From: Oscillospiraceae bacterium
GTDB taxonomy: Bacteria > Bacillota > Clostridia > Oscillospirales > CAG-272
Reading direction: 5' to 3'
Assembly (NCBI GenBank): GCA_015065295.1
Contig: SVQN01000018.1
Location: 1-41,383, forward strand
Length of the DNA: 41,383 nt
Part shown: in pieces, positions 25,958-39,322 of the stretch
How positions within the stretch are numbered: the first letter of the stretch is position 1
How the letters are laid out: each line of letters opens with the position of its first letter
The notes under the pieces: model-generated
What the model saw: the letters and a program-made list of their open reading frames with translations, nothing else
Told to the model about the DNA's origin: nothing
Database searches by the model: none
Position numbers and translations under genes: made by a program

Positions 25958-26473
25958 ATGAAGAAATGGTTGCCCATGCTTTTCTGCGGACTGCTGCTGT
26001 TCACTGCCTGCGGAAACCGGATGCCCGAAGGTGTCCCGCAGGATTTCGCGGTGTATTATGCCATGGGGATTGACACAGCGCAGATGAATATTCTTGACAC
26101 CTACGAGGGCTATATTCAGAAAGACCTCATCCGCAAGGGTACGGCGAGAGCGGATTATACGCCGACGGATGAAGAAATCGTCGCCATTTACAACAAAATC
26201 ACGGAACTGGAATTGTGGACAATGCCGAACAATGTGCGTCCGGATTCCGAGATCGTTCAGCCGACGACATATTTCGAGATACGCTTTACCATGGATGGGA
26301 TTACTTATGAAATTTTAGCGGATTCTACAATTAATCATAGTACATGGCTGAACGAAAATATCACGTCCAAGCAGGCGGAAGCAATCAATACCTTCTGTAG
26401 ATTCCTGCATGAATTAATGATGGACACAGACGAATACCACAGCCTTCCGGACAGCGAAGGCGGCTATATGTAA
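25958..26473 (+). CDS. Lipoprotein, tandem paralogue 1
   Basis: Secreted lipoprotein of 171 residues: signal MKKWLPMLFCGLLLFTAC with lipobox LFTAC (Cys18), then GNRMPEGVPQDFAVYYA, LDTYEGYIQKDLI, a helix TDEEIVAIYNKITELELW, and FEIRFTMDGITYEILADS. No known domain is recognised. The next gene encodes a close paralogue. A GAAAGGAG precedes the ATG. Confidence 0.82.
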   Translation: MKKWLPMLFCGLLLFTACGNRMPEGVPQDFAVYYAMGIDTAQMNILDTYEGYIQKDLIRKGTARADYTPTDEEIVAIYNKITELELWTMPNNVRPDSEIVQPTTYFEIRFTMDGITYEILADSTINHSTWLNENITSKQAEAINTFCRFLHELMMDTDEYHSLPDSEGGYM

Positions 26474-26494: not shown

Positions 26495-27001
26495 ATGAAA
26501 AGAATTTTTCCCTTCATTTTGACCGTTGTTCTGCTGACCGCCTGCGGAAACCGGATGCCCGAAGGTGTCCCGCAGGATTTCGCTGTGTATTACGCGGACT
26601 GGATTAACGAAAGCCAGCCGGACATACTCGATACCTACGAGGGATATATCCAGAAAGACCTCATCATGGATGGGACGGCGAAAACGGATTATACACCTTC
26701 GGAAGAAGAAATTACGGCGATATATGACAAAATTGTGGAGCTGGAATTGTGGAAGATGCCGGATAATATGCGGGCGGAAGCTGAGGTGATCCAGCCGATG
26801 ACGTATATGGAGATACGCTTCACGATGAACGGAAAGACGTATGAAATTCTGGCGGATACTACGGTTTTCCACGGTTACAATGAAAATATCGAACCTGAGG
26901 AAGCGGAAACCGTCGGAAAATTCTGTATGTTCATGCAGCAGTTCATGATGGACACGGACGAATACCAAAGCCTTCCGGAAAGCAGGGGAGGATATCAGTA
27001 A
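26495..27001 (+). CDS. Lipoprotein, tandem paralogue 2
   Basis: 168-residue lipoprotein (lipobox LLTAC) with the same layout as its upstream neighbour: GNRMPEGVPQDFAVYYA, LDTYEGYIQKDLI, EEEITAIYDKIVELELW, MEIRFTMNGKTYEILADT, MDTDEYQSLPES. Near-identical DNA runs through the segment after the lipobox in both genes, while other parts have diverged. That points to a recent duplication or local gene conversion. GGAGG precedes the ATG by seven bases. Function unknown. Confidence 0.82.
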   Translation: MKRIFPFILTVVLLTACGNRMPEGVPQDFAVYYADWINESQPDILDTYEGYIQKDLIMDGTAKTDYTPSEEEITAIYDKIVELELWKMPDNMRAEAEVIQPMTYMEIRFTMNGKTYEILADTTVFHGYNENIEPEEAETVGKFCMFMQQFMMDTDEYQSLPESRGGYQ

Positions 27002-27061: not shown

Positions 27062-27491
27062 GAGCAAATCTGAAAAATAGACAGAATTCATTCGCTTTCA
27101 GCTTCCCGTTGTCATTCCGAGGACTTATTACTATATATTTCAACTGAAGTTCTTGTCCGAGGAATCTTTGCACGCCACTGTGTAAGCCGTAAGGTATGTC
27201 CGTGGTATTCCCACCTATTCAGCTACAGAGGTTCAACTTTGTCATAACAAATAATCTGCTGTTCCTATATTTGTGCTGATTGTTCGTTATAGGCGTTCGT
27301 AAACCTCTGAAGCCGAAATTTCAACACAACCACGGACTTTCTCTACGGCTGACACAGGAGAGTGCAAAGATTCCTCAGGCAGGACGTGCAGTTTTGATTT
27401 TCAGCGAGTTTCGCCTTCGGAATGACAACGTTGGGTGCGAAGGGAAGGTTGGGCTTATCATTCTGATGTTCGTCAGATTTTGAATTTGCTC
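27062..27491. repeat. Long foldback element of about 430 bp
   Basis: No gene lies between 27001 and 27609. Paired blocks share one centre (sum about 54535): GAGCAAAT (27062) with ATTTGCTC (27484); GTTGTCATTCCGAGG (27109-27123) with CTTCGGAATGACAAC (27415-27429); GAGGAATCTTTGCAC (27159-27173) with GTGCAAAGATTCCTC (27362-27376); GTCCGTGGT (27198) with ACCACGGAC (27329); CAGAGGTT (27226) with AACCTCTG (27302). Between blocks the arms differ. The GTCATTCCGAG ... GAGGAATCT wording is common in dispersed repeats of many bacterial genomes. Confidence 0.85.
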
Positions 27492-27519
27492 GTTTTTAGT
27501 ATATTATTTATCCCAGTCC

Positions 27520-27599
27520 GAAAAGGTTTTTCGGAGGGGTTCGGCGGAGATTCCCTTCGGGAACTCCAACCCTTTTTCCTCAAAAAAGGGTTCCCCGAG
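27520..27599 (-). repeat. Dispersed terminator-like repeat after the second glycyl radical enzyme
   Basis: Minus-strand TCTCGGGGAACCCTTTTTTG, AGGAAAAAGGGTT, then an extra hairpin GGAGTTCCCGAAGGGAATCTCC split here as GGAGTTCCC-GAA-GGGAATCTCC, then CCGAACCCCTCCGAAAAACC. It is the longest of the four copies, with an inserted stem-loop, and begins nine bases after the stop codon. Confidence 0.7.
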
Positions 27600-27608
27600 A
27601 AACTTCAT

Positions 27609-29600
27609 TTAAACCGCATACTCCTGGCGGCGGATGACGTGATCCTGGAAGCCTTTGTCGAGTTCCACAAAGTACGCGCTCCATCCCCAGATACGCACGA
27701 TCAGACGCTCGTACTTTTCCGGGTGCGCCTGTGCGTCGAGCAGGGCTTCTCTCGATACCGCGTTGAGCTGGAGCTGATGACCGCCGCGCGAGACGAAGTA
27801 TTTCACCAGCGACGCCACCTTCGTCATGCTTTCTTCGGAAGCAAAAATTCTGCTGTCGAATTCCAGCGTCAGCGGACCGCCGTTGATGACCTTGCCGAGA
27901 TCGGGCGCGGTGAACGATTTCACAATATTGATCGGGTTGTCAATCTTCGCAAACAGCGACGCCGAGTAGTTCGCCGCAAACGGTTCGCCTTTGCGCCGGC
28001 CGTCCGGAGATGCGCCGATTTCGTCCGCGTGCCACAGATAGAACATCGCCGAACCGGTTCCCGCACGCCAGATGCCGCCGCGTTCGTTCGTCTTTCCGGC
28101 GAGGGCACCGGAGAACGTTTCCGTCAGCCATACAAGCTGTTCGTCCGCCGGTGCGGAGTTTTCCGTCCCCAGCTTCGGGGATTCGCTGCGGAGCGTGTGC
28201 AGAAGTTCGTCGTACCCCGCGAAATCCGCACGGACAGCCGCCGTGAATTCCTCAGCGGACATCGTTTTTTCTTCAAATACGACCTTCTTAATGGCTGCAA
28301 GCGAGTCCGCAGCACAGGAAACACCCGTCCCGTGGATGCCGAAGTTGTTGTACTTCATCCCTTCCGTAAAGGGTTTTCCGCCGTAGAGAAGTTCCATGAA
28401 CGGCGAGGGAACAAACCAGATGTTTTTTACGCCCGCCCGGATCACGTCGCACTGCGCGGTGATTTCCGCCGCGACGTTTATACGGAATTCCTCAAAATCC
28501 GCGCATTTTTCAAGCGTATTCAGCGCACGGTCCACCGCCAGCGGGTACGACATTGCGCCGATGTTGGCAATTTCCATGCCCACGCCCGGGATAATGAATT
28601 CCCAGCACGCCGCAACGGTGTAGTTTTCCGCGTCCGCCTTGTCGTAGCCGAGCTTCATCAGCGCGGGAATGACCGTGTCGTCGTTCGAATACTGCGGGAA
28701 TCCCAGTCCGACCTTTGTCAGCTTGGTGCCTTCCTCGTAGACCCACAGAGGCGTGTTTTTCGTTACACGCAGGTTGATCTTCGGGTCGATCAGCTTCAGT
28801 TCGCCGGACGCACGGAGACACATTCCGGTGAGGAGGTTGTAAATTTCGGAACCTGTGTCGGAATCGGTTCCGCCGAGCATCATGGACTGACCGTTGTCGC
28901 CCTGCTGGATGCCCGTGTACATATCGGAGTCAATGTTGAACGAGAGGAAGAAGTCGAGCAGGAGTTCGTACGCTTCGTTTTCCGTGAGCCGTCCCGCCGC
29001 GAGATCGGCTTCCAGATAGGGCATCATGTACTTGTCAAACCGTCCGACGGTGTTGTGATAGTTGCCCTCGAGCCAGAGTGAATAGTGGATGATCCGGAAG
29101 AACTGGAGTGCTTCGCGGAAGGTTTCCGCCGGGTACGCCGGTACTTTTTCAAGTACGTCCGCAACGTCGTTCCGTCCGGTGCGGAGAGCTTCGTCCCGGT
29201 AACGGGCAACGAGACGGAGAAGCGCGTCAATGTCGGCCTTCGCAAATTCGTCGGCACAATCCCGGACGGCGAGCAGACCGCGCTTCATGAGATAGGTGTG
29301 ATCGGGGCAGACGTTCGAGACATAGCCCTGTTCATGGAGAAAATGGTGGCTGCGGATGGCGTTCCATTCGTCCTCGGTGAAGCAGTCGTACGGACGGGGA
29401 ACGGTGCGAAGGAACACGATCTTCTGCCCGGGCAGGATGTGCGGCACTTCCGTGTCCATCACGCGGCAGAAACGGTCGGACATTCTGGCACGCGGCGACA
29501 GCCCTTCGGCCTTGTAGCGTTCCGCCTGAGAGGGAATCGGTTCCAGCCGGAATTCCCGCTGCCGGTGCGCGGTAATGAAATCGTATAAAGGCTGATTCAT
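27609..29600 (-). CDS. Second glycyl radical enzyme, CxE type
   Basis: PFL-family enzyme of 663 residues, distant in sequence from the one at 15893-18046. The radical loop is RIWGWSAYF (Gly639), the active-site Cys is in VAACWEFIIPG (Cys332) with Glu334 giving the Cys-x-Glu signature of dehydratase/lyase members. Other family features: RFDKYMMPY, LDFFLSFNID, LGGTDSDTG, GLGFPQYSNDD, GIHGTGVSCAADSLAA. Substrate unknown. CCGGAGG lies before the ATG at 29600. It has its own promoter at 29758-29786 and a 150-nt leader that consists mostly of a foldback repeat. It is a single-gene unit; no activase is adjacent. Confidence 0.9.
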   Translation of the reverse strand: MNQPLYDFITAHRQREFRLEPIPSQAERYKAEGLSPRARMSDRFCRVMDTEVPHILPGQKIVFLRTVPRPYDCFTEDEWNAIRSHHFLHEQGYVSNVCPDHTYLMKRGLLAVRDCADEFAKADIDALLRLVARYRDEALRTGRNDVADVLEKVPAYPAETFREALQFFRIIHYSLWLEGNYHNTVGRFDKYMMPYLEADLAAGRLTENEAYELLLDFFLSFNIDSDMYTGIQQGDNGQSMMLGGTDSDTGSEIYNLLTGMCLRASGELKLIDPKINLRVTKNTPLWVYEEGTKLTKVGLGFPQYSNDDTVIPALMKLGYDKADAENYTVAACWEFIIPGVGMEIANIGAMSYPLAVDRALNTLEKCADFEEFRINVAAEITAQCDVIRAGVKNIWFVPSPFMELLYGGKPFTEGMKYNNFGIHGTGVSCAADSLAAIKKVVFEEKTMSAEEFTAAVRADFAGYDELLHTLRSESPKLGTENSAPADEQLVWLTETFSGALAGKTNERGGIWRAGTGSAMFYLWHADEIGASPDGRRKGEPFAANYSASLFAKIDNPINIVKSFTAPDLGKVINGGPLTLEFDSRIFASEESMTKVASLVKYFVSRGGHQLQLNAVSREALLDAQAHPEKYERLIVRIWGWSAYFVELDKGFQDHVIRRQEYAV

Positions 29601-29757: not shown

Positions 29758-29786
29758 TTATACTATGTGCCGGGCGAAATTGCAAG
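29758..29786 (-). promoter_or_regulatory. Promoter of the second glycyl radical enzyme gene
   Basis: Minus-strand TTGCAA (29781-29786), 17-bp spacer, TATAAT (29758-29763). The -35 begins right after the stop codon of the upstream XRE-repeat gene. Confidence 0.8.
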
Positions 29787-29791
29787 AAAAA

Positions 29792-31453
29792 TCATTCCTC
29801 GTCGGGGGTATAATTCTCGGCGGTGCCGTAGACCTTGACCTTTTCCGCTTCGATGTCGCCGTTTGCGTCGCCGTGGACGGTCACGTCGCTGTCGGTCGTG
29901 ATATCGCCGTTCACGTCGCCGTCCACTTCAACGTCGCCCGTGGTATTGATATCGCCGCCGACATCTCCGCCGACATTCACGTCGCCTGTGGTATCGACAT
30001 CGCCGGAAATATCGCCGCCGACGTTCACGTCCGCCGATGTATCCACGTCTCCGTTGATATCGCCGCCCGCCATGACGGTCTGGGTCGTGTCCACATCGCC
30101 GTTGATGTCCCCGCCGGCGGTCACGTTGCCCGTGGTGTCGATATCGCCGTTGATATCGCCGTCCGATACGGTGACTGCGCCGGTCGTGTCAATATCGCCG
30201 TTCACGTCGCCGTTGATGACGATGCTGCACGCAGCGGACAGATCGCCGTCGTAATCCCCGTTGATCGTGACATTCTGTCCGTCCACGGAAATTTCGTCGT
30301 CGGAATCGGCTTCGATTTCTTCTTTCTTTGCTTTATTGCTGCCGATGCTGCCTGCCGCATGGACGGACATATTCGCGTGGGCATCGCCGCCGACGTTGTT
30401 GCAGTTGAGGGACATATTTGCGGACGCATTGCCGTACACGTCGCCGCAGTTGAGGGTCATGTTGGCGTGCGCGTCGCCGGTGACATTGCCGCAGGTCATG
30501 TTCATGTTGGAATGCGGATTGCCCATGACCTCGCCGTGGATGGTTGTGTCGAAGCCGGAGGAGGATTCGCCGGTCACGTCGCCGTTGACTTCGACGGAAA
30601 TGGAGGAACGGAGGGATTTCACATCGCCGTTGATGACCACGCGGACGAATTCGTTCGGGGAGCCCTTGAACTGGTTGACGATTTTGCCGTCCTTGACGAG
30701 GGCAATTTCGTATTCCTCGTCGGGATCGGTGAGGTCGAGCGTGTATTCGCTGACGGGGAGGGTGAAGCCGGACGTGTCGATCTGGGTATTGGAGCGGTCG
30801 AGCTTTTTCTTAATCCAGTTCCCGATTCCGTGCGGCTTCGGAGGTACCGGCGGAACGGGCGGAACCGGGGGAACCGGAGGTACTGGAGGCACCGGAGGAA
30901 TCGGCGGAACATCAATTTTCTGGGCGGGGATGGTCTGTCCCGGAATATGCTGTGCGGGAAGAACCTCGCCGGTCGGCAGATGGATTTCGGGAATATGGAT
31001 GTCCGGGATGTTGATTTCCGGAACTGTGATTGTATGCGCGGGTTCACCGGCTTCCGCTTCGGCGGCAAGGCGGTCATATTCTTCTTCGTTCGCTTCCACT
31101 TCCGCCGCGAGACGGTCGTAATATTCTTCGTCCGTTTCTTCAGCTTTGCCGCTGAGACGGTTAATAGTTTCATTGAAAGTATCGGTTTCCGGTGCTTCTT
31201 CCGGAACGGTTTCGGGTTCTGCGGGAGCTTTTTCTGCGTTCAGTTCCTCCACGCCGAGGATCGCCGCGATGTTTTCGTCAAATATTTCCGCGATGCGCGG
31301 GAGCGTGAGGATGTCCGGCAGGGTTTCGCTGCGCTCCCACTGGGAGACGGCCTGCGGACTGACGCCGAGCTGTTCCGCGAGTTCCGACTGCGTGAGTCCC
31401 TTTGCTTTGCGGAGGAACGCGATTTTCTGGCCGATGATGCTTCTGTCTGTCAT
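29792..31453 (-). CDS. XRE helix-turn-helix fused to polyproline and bactofilin-like repeat domain
   Basis: A 553-residue protein of unusual architecture. Residues 5-66 are a clear Cro/CI-type HTH (LTQSELAEQLGVSPQAVSQW). Residues 68-140 are Glu/Ala-rich; 144-160 alternate Ile-Pro (PEINIPDIHIPEIHLP); 183-207 is a PPV polyproline run. Residues 240-300 look like a beta domain. Then come about three 15-residue repeats (VTGDAHANMTLNCGD type, 322-366) and about eight 16-residue repeats (GDINGDVDTTGDVNVG type, 413-543). The regular Gly-Asp/Val spacing is that of right-handed beta-helices such as bactofilins, which polymerise. No signal peptide or membrane helix, so it should be cytosolic. It is preceded by a promoter with direct repeats that may be its own operator. 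I know no described family with this order of parts. Confidence 0.88.
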   Translation of the reverse strand: MTDRSIIGQKIAFLRKAKGLTQSELAEQLGVSPQAVSQWERSETLPDILTLPRIAEIFDENIAAILGVEELNAEKAPAEPETVPEEAPETDTFNETINRLSGKAEETDEEYYDRLAAEVEANEEEYDRLAAEAEAGEPAHTITVPEINIPDIHIPEIHLPTGEVLPAQHIPGQTIPAQKIDVPPIPPVPPVPPVPPVPPVPPVPPKPHGIGNWIKKKLDRSNTQIDTSGFTLPVSEYTLDLTDPDEEYEIALVKDGKIVNQFKGSPNEFVRVVINGDVKSLRSSISVEVNGDVTGESSSGFDTTIHGEVMGNPHSNMNMTCGNVTGDAHANMTLNCGDVYGNASANMSLNCNNVGGDAHANMSVHAAGSIGSNKAKKEEIEADSDDEISVDGQNVTINGDYDGDLSAACSIVINGDVNGDIDTTGAVTVSDGDINGDIDTTGNVTAGGDINGDVDTTQTVMAGGDINGDVDTSADVNVGGDISGDVDTTGDVNVGGDVGGDINTTGDVEVDGDVNGDITTDSDVTVHGDANGDIEAEKVKVYGTAENYTPDEE

Positions 31454-31493
31454 GATGAAATTCTCCGATCTGTGATGAATTGGGATGGAAATT

Positions 31494-31547
31494 CGTTCGT
31501 GTACACGTTCGTGATTTCAGCATACCATAGTTTGCCGCGGAATGCAA
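31494..31547 (-). promoter_or_regulatory. Promoter and candidate autoregulatory site of the XRE-repeat gene
   Basis: Minus-strand TTGCAT (31542-31547), 17-bp spacer, TATGCT (31519-31524). Right at the expected transcription start are two direct repeats CACGAACG spaced by 4 bases (31494-31501 and 31506-31513) that include the palindrome CGTGTACACG. The placement suits autorepression by the encoded HTH protein. Confidence 0.6.
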
Positions 31548-31591
31548 GAAAGCATTTGTTGAATTTTGAATTTTTTTGAAAAATCACGAAA

Positions 31592-31730
31592 TTCAAGCGT
31601 TGCTTTAGTTATGGTGAGCGTGAAGATAAGAAATTTCATGTTATTGGTATTTATAAAACCTTTTATATCCAATTAAGCGGAGATTGAATTTCCTTATAAT
31701 GGATAATTTCGGACTAAAGCATTGCTTGAA
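31592..31730. repeat. Foldback repeat between the XRE-repeat gene and the envelope cluster
   Basis: Arms TTCAAGCGTTGCTTTAGT (31592-31609) and ACTAAAGCATTGCTTGAA (31713-31730) pair at 16 of 18; inner ATAAGAAATTTC (31626) and GAATTTCCTTAT (31686) share the same centre (sum 63322-63323). The 380-bp gap otherwise holds only promoters; a weak TTCACC/TATACT pair (31769-31774, 31793-31798) may drive the next operon. Confidence 0.7.
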
Positions 31731-31834: not shown

Positions 31835-32335
31835 ATGAATCAGAATGGAAGCGGATTTCTCCGCGTTCGTGTGACCGAAGCGTCCGGAACGCTCCCCATC
31901 GAAGGAGCCGTGGTGCGGATCACGGACTATCCGGCGGAAGGCGAGAGTGACAGCGGACGGCTTCTTTATTCCCTCCGGAGCAATGCGGACGGTCTGACCC
32001 CCGTTGTGTCTCTTCCCGCGCCTCCCGCAGGCGACAGCCGTGTTCCCGGGGCGGCACAGCCGTACGCGGTCTACAATATTTCCGTCACCTATGACGGCTA
32101 TTATCCGGTGGAAGGCGTAGGCGTTCCGGTGTTCGACCGTGTGACCGCTGTGCAGCCGGTGAATCTTCTGCCGTATTCGGAGGAAGACCGGATCGCCGGT
32201 GCGGACAGCGGACGGGTAATGATCTACGAATTCCCCGATACCGAATCCCTTCAGCCGGGCGGCGTGACGCGCGGGGAGATCGGGAACAGCAACGGTACGG
32301 TCACGGGAGGGGTGCGGAACGGAGGTGACCGGTGA
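31835..32335 (+). CDS. Carboxypeptidase-regulatory-like domain protein of an envelope/spore cluster
   Basis: A 166-residue protein with an Ig-like carboxypeptidase-regulatory fold in its first 110 residues: RVRVTEASGTLPIEGAVVRI, LYSLRSNADGLTPVVSLPAP, YAVYNISVTYDGYYPVEGVG, followed by VFDRVTAVQPVNLLP, the usual order of such beta-sandwiches. A Gly/Thr-rich tail ends the protein. There is no signal peptide. AAAGCGAGG precedes the ATG. Its stop codon overlaps the GTG start of the next gene (GTGA at 32332-32335), so the two products are probably made together. The role is inferred from its partners, which bind peptidoglycan. Confidence 0.75.
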   Translation: MNQNGSGFLRVRVTEASGTLPIEGAVVRITDYPAEGESDSGRLLYSLRSNADGLTPVVSLPAPPAGDSRVPGAAQPYAVYNISVTYDGYYPVEGVGVPVFDRVTAVQPVNLLPYSEEDRIAGADSGRVMIYEFPDTESLQPGGVTRGEIGNSNGTVTGGVRNGGDR

Positions 32336-33732
32336 ACAATCCGATTCTCCGTCCGGTGATCCCGGAAAACGTGACCGTCCATCTCGGGCGGCCGGACAGT
32401 TCCGCGCGGAACGTGACTGTCCCGTTCACGGATTACATCAAAAACGTCGCGTCGAGCGAGATTTACCCCACATGGCCGGAATCTGCCATCCGTGCGAACA
32501 TACTCGCCCAGATCAGCTTTGTCCTGAATCGCATCTACACCGAATATTACCGCAGCCGCGGGTACGATTTTGACATCACCAACTCCACCTCCATCGACCA
32601 GAGCTTCGTCTACGGCCGCGACATTTTCACGAATATTTCGGAGATCGTGGACGAGATTTTCAATACCTACATCCGCCGTCGCGGATCGACGGAACCGCTG
32701 TTTGCCGCGTACTGCGACGGGGTGGAGGTGCAGTGCGGCGGACTGTCCCAGTGGGGAAGCGTGACACTGGCAAACAACGGTCTGACGCCGTACGAGATTC
32801 TGCAGTACTACTTCGGAGACGACATTGATCTGGTCGGGAACGTGCCGGTCGAGGGGGTGACGGAGAGCTACGAAGGAACGCCGCTCCGTCTCGGTTCGGT
32901 CGGCAATTCCGTCCGGCTGATCCAGATTCGCCTGAACCGGATTTCGCGGAATTTTCCCGGCATCCCGAAAATATCGAATCCGGACGGGTACTTCGATGCG
33001 GAAACACGGGATGCCGTGCGGGTCTTTCAGGAACAGTTTTCTCTCACGCCGGACGGTGTCGTCGGACCGGGGACGTGGTACGCCATCGCGCGCATTTATA
33101 ATGGAGTGAAGCGGATCACGGACGTGAATTCCGAGGGAATCCCGCCGGAAGACGTGACGCTGCTGTACGGGACGGAACTGCGCGAAGGTTCGGCAGGTGC
33201 GGGCGTGTCGGAATTGCAGTATTTTCTTGCACTGATTGCGGCATTCAACCCGTCCGTACGTCCGGTGGCGATCGACGGCGTGTTCGGCGCGAATACCCGG
33301 GCGGCGGTCGAGGATTTCCAGTACGATTACGGCCTTCCGGTGACCGGTGTGGTGCAGCTTCCCACATGGCGTGCGCTGTACACGACCTACCGGAATCTGC
33401 TGAATTCGCTTCCGGCGGGATATTTTTCGGTGGAAAACGCGCCGTATCCGGGAATTCCGCTGGTGGTCGGGGAGTCAAACGAAAGTGTACGGATTCTCCA
33501 GAACCGGCTGAACCGGATTTCGGACGTCTACACGGAGATTCCCAAGCTGACGGTGGACGGCGTATACGGAAGTGTGACGGAAACGGCGGTGCGGGTGTAT
33601 CAGCAGTTGTTCGGACTGACCCCGAGCGGCGCGGTCGGTGCGGAAACGTGGAATTCCATTGCGGATACCTACCGGACGCTCGTTCAGGGGGATGAAGGAA
33701 GTACCGCGCAGTTCGGCGGCGTGATTTCATGA
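32332..33732 (+). CDS. SpoIID-like protein with three peptidoglycan-binding domains
   Basis: A 466-residue protein without signal peptide. Residues 1-165 resemble the SpoIID/LytB N-terminal domain (ANILAQISFVLNRIYTEYY, YGRDIFTNISEIVDEIFN, EPLFAAYCDGVEVQ, GGLSQWGSVTLANNG, where QWGS is the conserved core). Three PG_binding_1 domains follow at about 178-255 (VRLIQIRLNRISRNFP ... GYFDAETRDAVRVFQEQF), 283-350 (DGVFGANTRAAVEDFQYDYG) and 385-455 (DGVYGSVTETAVRVYQQLFG). The start is GTG with GGAGG upstream and overlaps the previous stop codon. Likely role: binding and perhaps remodelling of cortex or cell-wall peptidoglycan in the mother cell or spore coat; enzymatic activity of the SpoIID part is uncertain. 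Confidence 0.85.
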   Translation: MNNPILRPVIPENVTVHLGRPDSSARNVTVPFTDYIKNVASSEIYPTWPESAIRANILAQISFVLNRIYTEYYRSRGYDFDITNSTSIDQSFVYGRDIFTNISEIVDEIFNTYIRRRGSTEPLFAAYCDGVEVQCGGLSQWGSVTLANNGLTPYEILQYYFGDDIDLVGNVPVEGVTESYEGTPLRLGSVGNSVRLIQIRLNRISRNFPGIPKISNPDGYFDAETRDAVRVFQEQFSLTPDGVVGPGTWYAIARIYNGVKRITDVNSEGIPPEDVTLLYGTELREGSAGAGVSELQYFLALIAAFNPSVRPVAIDGVFGANTRAAVEDFQYDYGLPVTGVVQLPTWRALYTTYRNLLNSLPAGYFSVENAPYPGIPLVVGESNESVRILQNRLNRISDVYTEIPKLTVDGVYGSVTETAVRVYQQLFGLTPSGAVGAETWNSIADTYRTLVQGDEGSTAQFGGVIS

Positions 33733-34262
33733 GGGGAGGAATGGCTTTGGTGAACATCGCGGACGATGCCGTCCGGACGGCGTATCTGCAGGAGATGCTG
33801 CGGTATCTCGGACAGGTGCTGTGCGAACCGCTGTGGCAGGTGGACGTGACGGGGACGTACAACCGTCCGACCGTACAGGCGGTACGGCGGTATCAGGAAA
33901 TGCGGCGGCTTCCGGTGACGGGGATTGTCGATCGGACGACATGGGAAATGCTGACGGCGGAGTATCTGCTTGAACGGGAACTGCGTGAACCGGTGATGAT
34001 CCGGGCGGTTCCGGACATTGCCTCGCACGCTACGCTGCCGGGACAGCGCGGGGATGAGGTGCTGCTTTTACAGATTCTGCTGAACGCTCTGCGGAACGAA
34101 TACGACTATCCGGCGGTTCCGCTGTCCGGCATTTACGGTGCACAGACATCGGAGGCGGTCGCGCAGTATCAGAAGTTCAACGGACTGGACGCGACAGGTA
34201 CTGCGGATCGCCGTACATGGCGGCGGCTGACGGAAGAATACAACGGACTGCGGGTGGGATGA
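33729..34262 (+). CDS. Protein with two peptidoglycan-binding domains
   Basis: A 177-residue protein made of two PG_binding_1 repeats: about 15-80 (YLQEMLRYLGQ ... GTYNRPTVQAVRRYQEMRRL ... GIVDRTTWEML) and about 100-170 (LLLQILLNALRNEYDYPAVP ... GIYGAQTSEAVAQYQKFNGL ... RTWRRLTEEY). No signal peptide and no catalytic domain. Its ATG overlaps the stop codon of the preceding gene (ATGA, 33729-33732). A GGGGAGGA lies after that ATG, so a TTG or GTG at 33747 or 33750 is an alternative start. It completes the three-gene overlapping cluster and is followed by a foldback repeat. Confidence 0.82.
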   Translation: MRGGMALVNIADDAVRTAYLQEMLRYLGQVLCEPLWQVDVTGTYNRPTVQAVRRYQEMRRLPVTGIVDRTTWEMLTAEYLLERELREPVMIRAVPDIASHATLPGQRGDEVLLLQILLNALRNEYDYPAVPLSGIYGAQTSEAVAQYQKFNGLDATGTADRRTWRRLTEEYNGLRVG

Positions 34263-34285
34263 GTTAACAGGAAACCGTCGTTGTT

Positions 34286-34432
34286 TTCGTAGGGACACGG
34301 CGTGCCGTGTCCGTCTGACAATTTGGATATTCTATAGTTTTTTGAAAGAAATGTCCGGAGCAGGCGTGGATTTTGAAGGAATTATGTTTGTCCAAACTGT
34401 TTGGCGGACACGGCACGCCGTGTCCCTACGAA
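34286..34432. repeat. Foldback repeat with perfect 28-bp arms
   Basis: TTCGTAGGGACACGGCGTGC plus CGTGTCCG at 34286-34313 is perfectly complementary to 34405-34432. Each arm contains its own palindrome GGACACGGCGTGCCGTGTCC. The centre (34314-34404) is AT-rich and weakly paired. Such GTAGGGACACGG elements are dispersed in many genomes. It lies between the envelope cluster and the ctsR operon. Confidence 0.9.
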
Positions 34433-34533
34433 ATAGCGATGGTCTTTTTTTAAATATAAAAAACTTCGATTTCGTGAGAAAAAACGAGCTTTTTGATACA
34501 TAATTTCGTCTAACCGGATTTCTCTGTATCTTT

Positions 34534-34611
34534 TTTGACTTTCTTTGACTTTGACCATTTCTGACTTTTGCGGTATACTATAGCCACAACGAAAGGTCAA
34601 AGATAGTCAAA
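34534..34611 (+). promoter_or_regulatory. ctsR operon promoter with two CtsR operators
   Basis: The promoter is TTGACC (34551-34556), 17 bp, TATACT (34574-34579). Downstream CtsR box: GGTCAAA-GAT-AGTCAAA (34595-34611), the canonical direct heptad repeat. Upstream on the other strand: AGTCAAA-GAA-AGTCAAA (34550-34534) with a further overlapping GGTCAAA (34556-34550) that covers the -35. Together they explain autorepression and heat induction of the four-gene operon. Confidence 0.93.
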
Positions 34612-34633
34612 ATCAAATAAACGGAGAACAGAG

Positions 34634-35089
34634 ATGATATTATCGGATCATATTGCAAGACTGATCGAAGAGATGCTCGAGGAGGGCGGCGGCAGTACGG
34701 AAGTGCGGCGGAACGACCTCGCAGCAAAAATCGGCTGTGTGCCGAGCCAGATCAATTATGTTATCACCTCGCGCTTCACGCCGGAACGCGGGTATGTGAC
34801 GGAATCCAGACGCGGCGGCGGCGGTTACATCCGGATCGTCCGCATCCAGATGACCAAAAACGAATACCTGATGCACTTTTTCCAGGCGATCGGTACGATG
34901 CTGGATGAAGCCGAAGCCAAGGCGTATCTGAAAAACCTGATCGAACATGGCGTCATGACCGAGAGGGAAGCGCGCGTGGCGATGCAGGCGATGTCGCAGT
35001 CGGCACTCGAAAAATGTCCGGCGGAAAAACGGGCGGCGGTCCGCGCGGATATCCTGCGCCACATCCTGATGCTGCTTATGATGGAATAA
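34634..35089 (+). CDS. ctsR: Heat-shock repressor CtsR
   Basis: Repressor of class III heat-shock genes in Firmicutes; binds the heptad repeats just upstream and is inactivated on heat shock with the help of McsA/McsB. The 151-residue product has the N-terminal winged HTH (LSDHIARLIEEMLEE, RRNDLAAKIGCVPSQINYVITSRF) and the glycine-rich wing and thermosensor ESRRGGGGYIRIVRI, then the helical C-terminal dimerisation domain. CGGAGAAC precedes the ATG. First gene of ctsR-mcsA-mcsB-clpC in the standard order. Confidence 0.97.
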   Translation: MILSDHIARLIEEMLEEGGGSTEVRRNDLAAKIGCVPSQINYVITSRFTPERGYVTESRRGGGGYIRIVRIQMTKNEYLMHFFQAIGTMLDEAEAKAYLKNLIEHGVMTEREARVAMQAMSQSALEKCPAEKRAAVRADILRHILMLLMME

Positions 35090-35133
35090 ACCAAATTTTT
35101 TAGAAACTGTATTGTATAACGGAGGAAAATCGT

Positions 35134-35709
35134 ATGCTTTGTGAGAGATGCAAGAAGAAGGAAGCGACCTTTTATTATCATGAAAACGTCAACGGGACGG
35201 AAAAAACCTATTCGCTCTGCCGTGACTGTGCGGACGAGCTGAAGAAATCCGGAGAACTGGGGAAATTCGGCGGTTTCGGAACGGAGTTTGCACCGTTCGA
35301 AAGCCTGTTTGCCCACGATCCGTTTGAAAATATCGACAGCCTGTTTTCAAAACAGGAGATTTTCGGAAGTCTGTTCGCTCCGGCGAAAACCCGCCAGCTT
35401 GCCGAACGCGGCAGTGCCAAGAAATGTCCCCTCTGCGGCATGACGCTGTCCGACTTTTCCAGAGAGGGCAAAGTGGGCTGTCCGACCTGCTACGAAACTT
35501 TCGCGGACGAGCTGGAACCCGCCATCGGCCGTATTCACGGCAGAACGGCGCATAACGGACGCGCACCGTCGAAATTCCGCGAAAAGACGGAACTCAAAAA
35601 CCGCATCCGTGCCCTTGAAGCGGAACAGAAGGAAGCAATCAAAACGGAAAATTACGAACGCGCGGCAGAGATCCGCGATGAACTGAAGAACCTGCGCGGT
35701 CAGGCGTAA
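35134..35709 (+). CDS. mcsA: McsA, zinc-finger activator of McsB
   Basis: Stimulates the arginine kinase McsB and modulates CtsR. The 191-residue product has the paired zinc-binding CxxC motifs CERC, CRDC, CPLC and CPTC, and a C-terminal UVR domain (RIRALEAEQKEAIKTENYER, then AAEIRDELKNL) that contacts McsB or ClpC. GGAGG lies 7 bases upstream of the ATG. The stop codon directly abuts an ATG of mcsB. Confidence 0.95.
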   Translation: MLCERCKKKEATFYYHENVNGTEKTYSLCRDCADELKKSGELGKFGGFGTEFAPFESLFAHDPFENIDSLFSKQEIFGSLFAPAKTRQLAERGSAKKCPLCGMTLSDFSREGKVGCPTCYETFADELEPAIGRIHGRTAHNGRAPSKFREKTELKNRIRALEAEQKEAIKTENYERAAEIRDELKNLRGQA

Positions 35710-35733
35710 ATGGGACAGAAAGGAGAAGCGAGT

Positions 35734-36753
35734 ATGTGGTATAAGAATAAGGGACAGGAAAACGACGTGGCGGTCAGCACCAGAATTCGTCTGGCACGGA
35801 ATCTGAACGGATACCCGTTTGAAGGACGCCTGAACGAAGAACAGGCAAAGGAAATTATCGAAAAAGTGTGGTCGGTGTTTGAAGGAAAATCCGGATGGAC
35901 GTTCGTGGATTTTTCCGCTCTTCCGGCAATCGAACGTGCATCCTACGCCGAACGTCATATCGTCAGCCCCGAATTTGCGAAAAAGCAGGGACCGTGCGCG
36001 CTGATCGTCAATGAGGAAGCGTCGGTATACATCATGGTTCTCGAAGAAGACCACCTCCGCATTCAGGCGATTTCCGCCGGATTTGACCTTTCCGGAACGA
36101 TGAAGGCGGTCACGGACGCGGAAAAATTACTCGACGAGGTACTGGACATCGCGTATTCCGAAAAGCTCGGTTATCTCACTCATTGCCCGACCAACCTCGG
36201 AACCGGAATGCGCGCGTCGGTCATGCTCCATCTTCCCGCATACATCGGCGCGGGCGGCATCCGGAATTTACAGGGACAGCTCGAAAAACTCGGACTGACC
36301 ATGCGCGGGATGACGGGCGAGGGAAGCTCTGCGTCCGGCGGTCTGTACCAGATTTCCAACCAGATCACCCTCGGCATCACGGAAGACGAAACCATCGCCA
36401 AACTCGAAGACGTGATCGGTCAGATCATCGCCAAGGAACGGGATTTGCGCGGACGCATTTCCAGAGACTCGCTCGACAACCTCTCTGACCGCGTGATGCG
36501 CGACATGGGCGTGATGATGTACGCGACCCGCATCGGTTCCGCCGAACTGATTTCCCTTTATTCGGACGTTCGTCTCGGCGCGGCACTGAACCTGTTGTCC
36601 CTTCCCATCGAAAAGCTGGACGAAATGCTGATGCGTTGTATGCCGAACACGATCTGTGCGGAACGGGAAGGCATGCTGACTCCGGCGGAACGCGACCGTG
36701 CGCGTGCGGCAATTGTCCGGGAAATCCTCGGCAAGGCGAATAACGCGGAATGA
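35734..36753 (+). CDS. mcsB: Protein-arginine kinase McsB
   Basis: Phosphorylates arginines on misfolded proteins, marking them for ClpCP, and on CtsR. The 339-residue product has the phosphagen-kinase fold: nucleotide-binding STRIRLARNLNGYPF near the N terminus, LTHCPTNLGTGMRASVMLHLP (the catalytic Cys region) and the RGMTGEGS loop. An in-frame ATG at 35710 abuts the mcsA stop, but AAAGGAG sits eight bases before the ATG at 35734 and MWYKNKGQENDVAVSTRIRL is the usual N terminus. Length matches the family. Confidence 0.95.
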   Translation: MWYKNKGQENDVAVSTRIRLARNLNGYPFEGRLNEEQAKEIIEKVWSVFEGKSGWTFVDFSALPAIERASYAERHIVSPEFAKKQGPCALIVNEEASVYIMVLEEDHLRIQAISAGFDLSGTMKAVTDAEKLLDEVLDIAYSEKLGYLTHCPTNLGTGMRASVMLHLPAYIGAGGIRNLQGQLEKLGLTMRGMTGEGSSASGGLYQISNQITLGITEDETIAKLEDVIGQIIAKERDLRGRISRDSLDNLSDRVMRDMGVMMYATRIGSAELISLYSDVRLGAALNLLSLPIEKLDEMLMRCMPNTICAEREGMLTPAERDRARAAIVREILGKANNAE

Positions 36754-36826
36754 AAACGTATAGAATAACAAGAGATATATAATAAAGGAAAGAAACGATC
36801 GAATATAAGGTAAGGAGGACATCCAC

Positions 36827-39322
36827 ATGAACATCGGATTTACCGGAAAGGCACAGAATGCGCTCAACCGAGCATTATATATCGCCTCCGAAATGGGGCA
36901 TACCTGCGTGGGAAGCGAACATCTTCTGCTCGGTCTGCTCTCCGAAAAGGACGGCATCGCCGAACGGGTGCTGAGCGAACGCAGCGTGACCTACGACAAA
37001 ACCAAACAGCTTCTCGCGGACAACGTCGGTGTCGGCAGCCCGAGCAAGCTGTCAGCGGCGGACATTACGCCGCGCACGAAAAAGATCATCGAACAGTCGG
37101 CGGGCATTGCCGTCAGCATGGGACATGGCTACATCGGGACGGAGCATCTGCTTCTTGCCCTGTGTGACGAAAGCGAGTGCTTTGCCGTCCGTCTGATCGC
37201 GGAACAGGGAGCGTCCGCCGCCGATCTCCGACGGGATGTCCTTGCAAGTCTCGGTCAGGAGTCGAATGACCGGGGTCACGGCAGTTCCTCGGGAGTATCC
37301 GGTTCCGGAAACGGCGCAAACGGCGGAAAAAAGTCGGACGAAGGTCTGCGCGATGCCCAGAATCTCACGCAGTTCGGACGAAACCTCTGCAAAATGGCGA
37401 AGGAAGGGAAGATCGACCCCATCATCGGCCGTGACAACGAAACGGCAAGGGTCATCCAGATTCTTTCCCGCCGCACGAAAAACAATCCCTGTCTGATCGG
37501 GGAACCCGGCGTCGGCAAAACCGCCGTAGTCGAAGGTCTGGCACAGCGCATCGTGGACGGAAGCGTACCGGATACCCTCCGGAATAAGGTGATCGTCACC
37601 CTCGATATTTCCGCCATGATCGCCGGTGCGAAGTACCGCGGCGAATTCGAAGAACGCATGAAAAACGTCATGGACGAAGTCCGCCGCAATCCGCAGATCA
37701 TCCTGTTCATCGACGAAATCCATACCATCATCGGTGCCGGCGGTGCGGAAGGTGCCGTCGATGCTGCCAACATCATCAAACCCGCGCTGGCACGAGGAGA
37801 AATGCAGGTCATCGGCGCAACGACCATTGACGAATACCGCAAGCACATCGAAAAGGACGCCGCGCTCGAACGCCGGTTCCAGTCCGTCATGGTCGGCGAA
37901 CCGTCACCGGAAGAAGCCGAACAGATTCTGCTCGGTCTGCGCGACAAGTACGAAGCACACCATAAACTCAAGATTTCCGACGACGCGATTGCTGCCGCCG
38001 TGAAGCTGTCCGTGCGCTACATCAGTGACCGCTGGCTGCCCGACAAGGCAATCGACCTCATCGACGAAGCGGCAAGCAAGAAGCGCATTGACTCGTTTAC
38101 GCCCACGCCGGACGTGCGTGAACTGGAGGAAGCCCTCAAGAAAACGACTGCCGAAAAGGAAGAAGCGATCCTCGGCGAAGATTACGAAGGTGCGGCACGT
38201 CTGCGCGACGAAGAAAAGAAGCTCACGGAGGAACTGGAAGCAAAGAAATCCGCATCTGTTCCCGGAAGTTCCGGCGACATGGTCGTGGATGCGTCCGATA
38301 TCGCGGACATTGTGACCTCATGGACGGGGATTCCCGTGAAAAAGCTGGCGGAAGAAGAGGGCGAACGCCTGATGAAGCTCGACGCGATCCTGCGCGAACG
38401 GGTCATCGGACAGGACGAAGCCGTGGACGCGGTTGCCCGTGCGATCCGCCGCGGACGGATGGGGCTCAAGGATCCGAAGCGTCCGACCGGCTCGTTCATC
38501 TTCCTCGGCCCGACCGGTGTAGGTAAGACCGAACTGTCGAAGGTTCTGGCGGACACAATGTTCGGCGACGAAAACGCCATGATCCGCGTGGATATGTCGG
38601 AATACATGGAAAAGCACAGCGTATCGAAGCTGATCGGCTCCCCTCCGGGCTATGTCGGCTACGATGAGGGCGGACAGCTCACGGAAAAAATCCGCCGCAG
38701 ACCGTATTCGGTTGTCCTGTTCGACGAAATCGAAAAGGCGCACCCGGATGTGTTCAACATCCTTCTCCAGATTCTCGAAGACGGCATCCTCACCGATGCA
38801 CAGGGACGACGGGTGGATTTCAAGAATACCGTCATCATCATGACCTCGAACGCCGGGGTTTCCGATCTGGCGAACGCGCCGCGCAAGCTCGGATTTGCCG
38901 TGGATGAAGAAGCGGCGAACCGTGACGAAAGGGAAGCAACGAAGGCCGCGCTCACGGAAGCCCTCAAGCGGACATTCAAGCCGGAATTCCTCAACCGCGT
39001 GGACGAAACGATCATTTTCAACAAGCTGACCGACGCGGATATCGAAAAGATCACGGATATCATGCTCGGCGAGGTGAAGAAGCGCATTGCCGCACTCGAC
39101 ATTTCGATCACGTTCGATCATGATGTAGTCGCATCGCTGGCGAAGGAAGGCTTTGATCCGGCATACGGCGCAAGACCGCTCCGCCGTGCGATTGTCCGGA
39201 GAGTGGAAGACAGCTTCTCGGAAGCGATGCTCGGCGGTACCGTCAAGGCGGGCGACACCGTGACGGCGGTACTGGAAGACGGCGTGATCCGTTATAAAGT
39301 GGGCGAACCGGCAGCCGTATAA
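36827..39322 (+). CDS. clpC: AAA+ unfoldase ClpC
   Basis: Hsp100 ATPase that unfolds substrates, including arginine-phosphorylated proteins, for the ClpP protease. The 831-residue product has two Clp N-terminal repeats (1-145), a Gly/Ser linker (about 148-166), AAA domain 1 with GEPGVGKT, a UVR-containing middle domain ([15 protein letters not shown]), AAA domain 2 with [12 protein letters not shown], and the C-terminal D2-small domain. It ends ...GEPAAV. AAGGAGGACATCCAC precedes the ATG. Last gene of the CtsR operon; the 73-bp gap after mcsB has a TATAAT but no clear -35. Confidence 0.97.

What the first reader, a model, noticed from the sequence alone, without database searches (positions are those of the whole stretch)
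29792..31453. XRE regulator fused to polyproline and polymer-type beta-helix repeats
A DNA-binding HTH (5-66) is followed by an acidic segment, an Ile-Pro alternation, a PPV run (183-207) and two sets of short repeats: about three of 15 residues with a conserved Cys (NCGD, NCNN) and about eight of 16 residues (GDINGDVDTTGDVNVG type). The second set has the spacing of bactofilin-like beta-helices, which self-assemble. A soluble transcription factor with a potential polymer-forming domain could form filaments on DNA or couple a cytoskeletal scaffold to gene control. I know of no described system with this layout. The sequence shows the parts; polymerisation is inference.
Basis: partly seen in the sequence, partly recalled or inferred. 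Interest (0 to 1): 0.78.

Follow-up and report, generated by a model that had tools for sequence, protein, structure and literature searches.

The report
Self-regulating DNA-binding bactofilin-like rod protein
A gut Clostridia protein joins a gene-switch (helix-turn-helix) domain to a long, very acidic relative of the bactofilin cytoskeletal fold, and it and its relatives carry regularly spaced DNA sites in front of their own genes, so it probably controls its own production through a multi-site complex; whether it also forms filaments is unproven.

Summary
The gene (29792-31453, minus strand, 553 aa) is as described: XRE/HTH_3 domain, variable linker, then two sets of 15- and 16-residue coils that match Pfam Bactofilin (64.2 bits, cut-off 27.9; 0 of 5 shuffles match). 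Of 25 genomes of the genus (66-94% complete), 16 carry the whole fusion and one a copy cut by a contig end. The coils are under purifying selection. Beyond the finding: all 17 upstream regions share two pseudo-palindromes (A; B overlapping the -35) and 12 of 17 have a third (C). Their spacings differ in steps of about one DNA turn. In fusion-bearing genomes 15 of 19 matches to the A-type palindrome lie at the fusion's own promoter, and the sites follow the fusion, not the neighbouring cell-wall operon. Best reading: a local autoregulator with phased operators, the acidic beta-solenoid serving as oligomerisation or docking rod. The Phe needed for canonical bactofilin polymers is missing in 16 of 16 members and the solenoid is strongly acidic, so the sequence does not support filaments. 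New variant of a known kind.

The parts
29792..31453 (-). Fusion gene, 553 aa: XRE HTH + linker + cap + bactofilin-type coils
   Evidence: 16 whole members aligned
31256..31441 (-). HTH domain, residues 5-66; recognition-helix region QAVSQWER nearly invariant in 16 members
   Evidence: HTH_3 E 2.2e-14; alignment A1
30812..31255 (-). Variable linker, residues 67-214: acidic part, Ile-Pro alternation, PPx run 183-205. Coiled-coil-like in some relatives, with an added FtsK_gamma domain in 3 of 16, only 20-25 residues in three
30650..30811 (-). Conserved cap segment before the coils, residues 215-268
   Evidence: alignments A1 and A3; dN/dS 0.09-0.14 for residues 215-285
30350..30649 (-). First coil set, residues 269-368: about 15-16 residues per coil, one Cys in each of three coils
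   Evidence: lag-15 identity 0.36; on its own only a weak Bactofilin match, 19.6 bits, below cut-off, and no better than Pfam C6 (20.6 bits, also below cut-off)
30278..30349 (-). Acidic spacer between the coil sets, residues 369-392
   Evidence: highest dN/dS of the seven regions in three of three pairs, 0.20-0.41
29834..30277 (-). Second coil set, residues 393-540: about nine 16-residue coils of GDINGDVDTTGDVNVG type
   Evidence: Bactofilin 66.4 bits on residues 386-553; lag-16 identity 0.52
31519..31524 (-). Putative -10 (TATGCT)
   Evidence: by eye; TA and TG columns invariant in 17 upstream regions; letters checked
31542..31547 (-). Putative -35 (TTGCAT), 17-bp spacer
   Evidence: by eye; letters checked
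31545..31564 (-). Operator-like site B (ATTCAACAAATGCTTTCTTG), overlapping the -35
31592..31608 (.). Operator-like site A (minus strand CTAAAGCAACGCTTGAA)
   Evidence: invariant block in 17 upstream regions; matrix score 14.0; pattern hit
31714..31730 (.). Operator-like site C (CTAAAGCATTGCTTGAA), 122 bp from A
   Evidence: matrix score 15.1; pattern hit; spacing
31835..34262 (+). Neighbouring divergent operon (166 aa without Pfam match; 466 aa SpoIID + PG_binding_1; 177 aa PG_binding_1): conserved neighbour, not shown to be a target
   Evidence: neighbour in 14 of 17 loci; domains; no strong A-type site in front of it where the fusion is elsewhere or not found

Best explanation
It is a soluble XRE-type regulator whose C-terminal half is a long acidic beta-solenoid built on the bactofilin coil pattern. 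SHOWN by sequence: the architecture, its conservation and selection, a two- or three-site footprint at its own promoter in all 17 loci, spacings that differ by about one DNA turn, and the concentration of A-type sites at the fusion's own promoter. INFERRED: the HTH binds these sites; protein units bound to A, B and C contact each other (looped or stacked complex) and occlude the -35, giving autorepression; the solenoid supplies or presents the contact surface, by oligomerising or by docking a partner whose state feeds back on expression. Since recognisable sites concentrate at its own gene, the rest of its job probably lies in the solenoid (scaffold or docking rod), and the DNA-binding part keeps its amount in check.
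For: 16 of 16 whole members match HTH_3 and Bactofilin at E<=0.01. A profile of the C-terminal halves finds bactofilins of known structure (6ria E 6.3e-7, 2n3d E 2.1e-5). dN/dS of the GD coils 0.11-0.17, near the HTH's 0.07-0.12. In the alignment of 17 upstream regions the 21 invariant columns lie in site A, site B/-35 and the -10 (assignment to blocks by eye). Pattern CAAN6CTT: 35 occurrences against a mean of 1.9, maximum 7, in 300 first-order Markov shuffles (pattern chosen after seeing the sites). Spacings A-B 24, 33, 35-36 (9 loci), 45-46 (4), 55-56 (2); C-A 121-123 (3), 131-134 (4), 142-144 (5); hence, by addition, C-B 167-169 (7 loci) or 177-180 (5), about 16 or 17 turns. On a tree of 16 of the 17 these classes need at least 4 changes for A-B and 4 for C-A, the latter counting presence or absence of C. 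A-type palindrome: 15 of 19 places in the 17 fusion-bearing genomes are at the fusion's own promoter. In front of the cell-wall operon no A-type site as strong as the window's (14.0, 15.1) was found in 7 of 7 genomes where the operon was found and the fusion is not beside it: 4 without a fusion found, 3 with it elsewhere; best score in front 7.7, at the start of the first gene 8.8, inside the second gene 10.4. One of those three, G005 (L031), keeps A, B and C at its fusion.
Against: No binding or expression data and no structural model. Spacing classes are shared by kin, so the Rayleigh values (A-B distinct 0.002, C-A distinct 8e-4) overstate the evidence, and in the window's clade the A-B and C-A shifts may be one event. 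A-B of 33 (L032) and 24 (L036) rest on the -35-side half-site alone. Five of 17 loci show no C; the C sites of L030 and L034 are weak (8.0, 11.4) and that of L021 scores below 7. The A-type pattern misses the sites of G000 (the window's own genome), G005, G012, G022 and G024, and has 4 places elsewhere in fusion-bearing genomes and 5 in the 8 others. The second pattern is not specific: 15 of 39 places in fusion-bearing genomes at the own locus (2 of 3 in G000), 40 places in the 8 others. The reversed-pattern controls were more frequent than the patterns in both searches. The matrix sees A-type sites but hardly B-type ones (window B 5.9). Low dN/dS is not special to the coils: the Ile-Pro/polyproline linker has 0.08-0.18. 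Phasing is also normal for ordinary dimeric repressors, so it does not show that the solenoid makes the contacts.
Confidence: 0.55

Rival explanations
1. Docking or sensing rod: the solenoid is a protein-docking surface, and partner binding changes DNA binding by the HTH, as proposed for Toastrack beta-helix proteins in envelope stress; self-assembly is not needed.
For: A similar cap and Cys coils occur behind a weakly SHOCT-like N-terminus instead of the HTH (L235), and an XRE + DUF2807 protein exists in the same phylum (L163). PMC11237479 (passages) proposes that docking to Toastrack may act through fused or associated HTH domains. Neighbourhood with a SpoIID/peptidoglycan-binding operon in 14 of 17 loci, often with ctsR-mcsA-mcsB beyond it.
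Against: No ligand or partner known; no envelope gene shown to be a target; A-type sites follow the fusion, not the cell-wall operon.
Confidence: 0.25
2. Bactofilin-like filament former: the solenoid polymerises end to end and the HTH anchors the polymer to DNA or couples polymer state to gene control.
For: Bactofilin coil pattern above the curated cut-off and matched by 16 of 16 members; bactofilins assemble into non-polar filaments (start of the abstract of PMC12448750).
Against: None of 16 members has a Phe in the last 60 residues, whereas F106 is invariant in 14 of 14 canonical proteins and F.G.C is found in 13 of 14. Net charge of the C-terminal part -11.5 to -18.8 per 100 residues (-24 to -60 in all), against -11 to +4 in all for whole canonical bactofilins. 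Profile-profile match to canonical bactofilins covers only 41 columns. Coil number varies among members.
Confidence: 0.13
3. DNA mimic: the acidic solenoid competes with DNA for the protein's own HTH or for another DNA-binding protein.
For: Net charge of the 324-residue C-terminal part is -53, and acidity is kept in 16 of 16 members; the whole protein is -13.7 per 100 residues against -7.5 to +0.5 for the 20 other window proteins measured.
Against: The HTH is itself neutral to slightly negative (0 to -3). Acidic ladders can also bind cations or keep a repeat protein soluble. Resemblance to pentapeptide-repeat DNA mimics is recalled, not tested.
Confidence: 0.05
4. RodZ-like: the HTH is a protein-interaction domain and does not bind DNA.
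For: XRE-type HTH domains can serve as cytoskeletal adaptors (RodZ, recalled).
Against: Pseudo-palindromic footprint at the own promoter in 17 of 17 loci; no membrane helix (highest 19-residue mean hydropathy 1.56 in 16 members); near-invariant recognition-helix region; 3 of 16 add an FtsK_gamma domain.
Confidence: 0.02

Closest known systems
Bactofilin family (PF04519, IPR007607)
   Same: Coil length and pattern; Pfam above cut-off in the window protein; profile matches to 6ria and 2n3d
   Different: N-terminal HTH; 14 coil motifs here and up to 24 in relatives, against six repeats in canonical proteins (PMC4372379 passage); interface Phe absent; much more acidic
KfrA-type plasmid proteins (PMC7821693; abstract and section 9 read)
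   Same: N-terminal DNA-binding head and long tail; described as transcriptional auto-regulators that form filaments when bound to their operator
   Different: KfrA tail is an alpha-helical coiled coil; here the tail is a bactofilin-type repeat region; filaments untested
Toastrack (DUF2807/DUF4097) beta-helix proteins linked to HTH domains (PMC11237479; passages read)
   Same: Beta-helix linked with transcriptional domains; predicted intracellular
   Different: No DUF2807/DUF4097 among the families listed for this protein (25 of 27 shown); different coil pattern and cap
XRE (HTH_3) repressors such as SinR and P22 C2
   Same: HTH alignable to 3qq6 (E 2.9e-5) and 2r1j (E 6.1e-5)
   Different: Those lack such a repeat region (recalled)

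Membership tests
Bactofilin | Repeat coils matching PF04519 | tested here: met
   64.2 bits against cut-off 27.9; 16 of 16 members match at E<=0.01; 0 of 5 shuffles
Bactofilin | Compact core of about 110 residues flanked by unstructured tails | tested here: not met
   C-terminal region of 199-454 residues with 6-24 coil motifs, behind an HTH; core size from a PMC12448750 passage
Bactofilin | Conserved Phe of the C-terminal polymerisation interface | tested here: not met
   No Phe in the last 60 residues in any of 16 members; F106 invariant in 14 of 14 canonical proteins
Bactofilin | Nucleotide-independent polymerisation | not testable with these tools
   needs purified protein
Bactofilin | Right-handed beta-helix fold | not testable with these tools
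   structure prediction busy, then switched off; only sequence profiles available
XRE regulator | HTH_3 domain | tested here: met
   E 2.2e-14
XRE regulator | Binds a palindromic operator and regulates transcription | tested here: inconclusive
   Footprint in 17 of 17 promoters, no binding data
KfrA type | Alpha-helical coiled-coil tail | tested here: not met
   Tail is a bactofilin-type repeat region by profile; coiled-coil-like linkers in some relatives (by eye)
KfrA type | DNA-triggered filaments | not testable with these tools
   needs electron microscopy
Toastrack | Match to DUF2807/DUF4097 | tested here: not met
   None among the listed Pfam matches of the window protein or its coil sets; L163, an XRE protein elsewhere, does match DUF2807
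RodZ | Transmembrane helix after the HTH | tested here: not met
   Highest 19-residue mean hydropathy 1.12 in the window protein, at most 1.56 in 16 members

The most novel reading that the evidence does not exclude
A chromosomal counterpart of KfrA: a self-limiting scaffold whose beta-solenoid assembles on three helically phased operators, so that the assembly state of the rod is read out directly by its own promoter; some members add an FtsK-gamma DNA-binding module, tying the scaffold to chromosome handling.
Probability: 0.2. Interest if true: 0.82.

Novelty: new variant of a known kind. Interest (0 to 1): 0.6.

Why it matters
It would be a gene regulator whose second half is a relative of a cytoskeletal protein, which makes a direct link between scaffold assembly and transcription testable with one gene and one promoter. 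The phased sites give exact predictions: moving A or C by half a DNA turn should break control, moving it by a whole turn should not.

Tried and rejected
Operator at 31494-31513 (CGTGTACACG): only in the window, L021 and L022; set aside as the family operator.

Regulation of the divergent cell-wall operon through site C: weakened. C stays with the fusion in G005 (L031) without that operon beside it, and the operon has no strong A-type site where the fusion is not beside it. Against this: G004 has an 8.8-scoring sequence at the start of the operon's first gene and an XRE gene of another kind (187-residue frame, no GD coils) upstream of the operon, and G007 has a 7.7-scoring sequence close upstream of it; I take these as chance but did not test it. 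The operon was not found in G009, G020, G021 and G023.

Pattern TTCAASNNNNNCTTTA as a genome-wide probe: too unspecific. The reversed patterns used as controls by the tool were more frequent than the patterns; that is itself a palindrome and not neutral.

Defence system: PADLOC matches are to HTH parts, apart from one weak other match in L026 (LeoBC, E 6.7e-5). The DUF583 hits in PMC13092281 were DUF5830 (passages). PHROGs gave HTH families, an unnamed phrog_3163 over the coils (E 6.4e-18) and, for L026, FtsK-like families. PMC5882156 (find in main text) does not mention bactofilin.

Wider survey: samples of the class (391 genomes) and phylum (398). Bactofilin matches over the cut-off are common (130 of 391), but XRE fusions with such a cap or coils outside the genus were seen only in L121 and L129, and in split frames in L174. 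Only the loci returned (up to 30 a call) and 34 further regions, chosen by frame length or by the part of the profile matched, were checked for an HTH, so this is a lower bound.

Full report
What is there. The minus-strand gene 29792-31453 encodes 553 residues. Pfam finds HTH_3 (E 2.2e-14) and Bactofilin (64.2 bits, cut-off 27.9). Five shuffles of the second repeat set match nothing in Pfam at E<=1, whereas the real segment (386-553) gives 66.4 bits. The Cys-bearing set alone is only a weak match (19.6 bits, E 0.0011, below cut-off; Pfam C6 scores 20.6 bits there, also below cut-off).

The family. Searching 40 related genomes and fetching loci gave 16 whole members in the 25 genomes held of the genus and one cut by a contig end (G019). 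The genomes are 66-94% complete, so absence from the other 8 is not proven. All 16 match HTH_3 and Bactofilin at E<=0.01. Conserved: the HTH, a cap segment (SLPxSExxxDF...YEIxLxKDGKIV) and the coils. The linker is free: Ile-Pro and polyproline in the window's clade, coiled-coil-like stretches in others, and in L025, L026 and L027 an FtsK_gamma domain (best E 5.5e-24). In the window's own genome (70.8% complete) Bactofilin matches occur only in this gene. In the genus 18 of 25 genomes have a Bactofilin match over the cut-off, in some of them from separate proteins without HTH.

Constraint. Between the window, L021 and L022, dN/dS (Nei-Gojobori, own script) is 0.07-0.12 for the HTH, 0.09-0.14 for the cap, 0.11-0.17 for the GD coils, 0.15-0.32 for the Cys coils, 0.18-0.29 for the acidic linker, 0.08-0.18 for the Ile-Pro/polyproline part and 0.20-0.41 for the spacer. 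So the coils are not a freely varying tail, although low values are not special to them and coil number differs widely between members.

Fold and self-assembly. A profile of the 16 C-terminal halves finds bactofilin 6ria (E 6.3e-7) and Bactofilin A 2n3d (2.1e-5), but also a tail fibre (9cuy, 1.1e-6) and a baseplate spike (9f4a, 6.3e-4), so repeat bias plays some part. hhalign against 14 canonical bactofilins gives 96% probability over only 41 columns. Of 151 coils picked by a loose pattern, positions 3, 5 and 13, which the pattern did not fix, are hydrophobic in 72, 80 and 70%, as inward residues of a solenoid would be. Against polymerisation: PMC12448750 (passages) reports that changing a conserved Phe in the C-terminal interface abolishes polymers; none of the 16 members has a Phe in its last 60 residues, while F106 of alignment A6 is invariant in 14 of 14 canonical proteins. 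That F106 is the same Phe is my inference from its C-terminal place. The C-terminal part carries -24 to -60 net charges. Six repeats of 16-18 residues in canonical bactofilins are from a passage of PMC4372379.

DNA sites. In the 17 upstream regions aligned, the 21 invariant columns lie in two pseudo-palindromic blocks and the -10. Block A is [CGT]GCAAGNNNNNCTTG[AC]A in 14 loci and CTAAAGCNNNNCTTGAA in the window, L021 and L022; block B, TTCAASAANNGCTTTATTG-like, overlaps the -35. A third site C occurs in 12 of 17 by a loose pattern and in 11 of 17 with a matrix score above 7. The matrix from 14 A sites scores above 9 at five places (best 12.0) more than 600 bp from the gene starts in these 17 loci, 207,790 bases in all; it hardly sees B-type sites. 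Spacings fall into classes about one DNA turn apart; C to B is, by addition, 167-169 bp in seven loci and 177-180 in five. A tree of 16 of the 17 needs at least four changes for each of A-B and C-A; the window's clade differs from L028, L030, L031 and L034 by a shift of A of about 10 bp with C-B unchanged. Significance values ignore kinship and should be read as suggestive.

Locality. Over 25 genomes the A-type pattern has 24 places: 19 in the 17 fusion-bearing genomes, 15 of them at the fusion's own promoter, and 5 in the 8 others; it misses the sites of G000, G005, G012, G022 and G024. The second pattern finds own-locus sites in 12 of 17 genomes (15 of 39 places; in G000 2 of 3) but has 40 places in the 8 genomes without a fusion, so it is mostly background. 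In both searches the reversed control pattern was more frequent than the pattern. The divergent SpoIID/PG_binding operon is the neighbour in 14 of 17 loci (domains). In four genomes without a fusion found and three with the fusion elsewhere the operon has no A-type site as strong as the window's: best 7.7 in front of it, 8.8 at the start of its first gene, 10.4 inside its second, against 14.0 and 15.1. In one of those three (L031) A, B and C accompany the fusion. The sites therefore appear to belong to the fusion gene.

Relatives elsewhere. L129 (XRE + cap + Cys coils) is a distant relative: its C-terminal part matches the window protein at 31% identity, E 2e-11, though it scores only 14.6 bits for Bactofilin. 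L121 has an XRE HTH, a similar cap and a few coils (Bactofilin 24.5 bits, below cut-off). L235 has a weak SHOCT-like start (19.7 bits, below cut-off) before the same kind of cap and coils, and L163 joins XRE to DUF2807 (38.5 bits, over cut-off). Joining HTHs to beta-solenoids thus looks like a recurring theme, of which the Toastrack proteins of PMC11237479 (passages) are a described branch; that main text does not mention bactofilin.

Known systems. The closest functional parallel is KfrA (PMC7821693, abstract and section 9): an autoregulator with a self-assembling tail whose filaments form on its operator. I found no description of an HTH-bactofilin fusion in the listings of searches of an open-licence library (one search showed 12 of 497 papers; most papers were not read); subscription papers and databases of domain architectures were not available.

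Verdict. The evidence points to a local autoregulator with phased operators and an acidic bactofilin-type solenoid rod. Filaments are possible but not supported by the sequence hallmarks tested.

Noticed in passing
L046, L048, L051, L055, L058, L059: Separate bactofilin-like proteins (frames of 239-304 residues) without HTH in six genomes of the genus, with a different second half.
   Followed up: partly
L025, L026, L027 (linker of the fusion): FtsK_gamma domain between HTH and solenoid in one clade, a second probable DNA-binding module.
   Followed up: partly
window 31835-39322: Divergent SpoIID/peptidoglycan-binding operon (beside the fusion in 14 of 17 loci) followed by ctsR-mcsA-mcsB-clpC; a -10-like GCATAYAMTG is conserved some 60-80 bp from site C.
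   Followed up: partly
L235, L238, L239: A similar cap segment follows a SHOCT-like helix pair (Pfam checked for L235 only), in two cases after an N-terminal bactofilin-like region (by eye).
   Followed up: partly
L174 (G265): An XRE + CGD-coil gene whose HTH lies in two reading frames (frameshift or sequencing error).
   Followed up: no
L249 (G004) 1475-2035: An XRE gene of another kind, without GD coils, about 0.7 kb upstream of the SpoIID/PG-binding operon in a genome where no fusion was found.
   Followed up: no
25 genomes of the genus (control): The reversed control palindrome AMGTTCNNNNNGAACKT is frequent in some genomes (13 places in G005, 7 each in G012 and G018, 3 in the window's genome), perhaps another regulator's site.
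   Followed up: no
window 25958-26473 and 26495-27001: Two adjacent, similar lipoprotein-like genes, apparently a tandem duplication (by eye); the first has no Pfam match.
   Followed up: no
window 29765-31579 (+) and 27435-29081 (+): Long open frames antisense to real genes; probably a by-product of codon composition.
   Followed up: no
window 27609-29600 and 15893-18046 (-): Two glycyl-radical-enzyme-like genes; the first has PFL-like and Gly_radical domains, the second was judged by eye.
   Followed up: no
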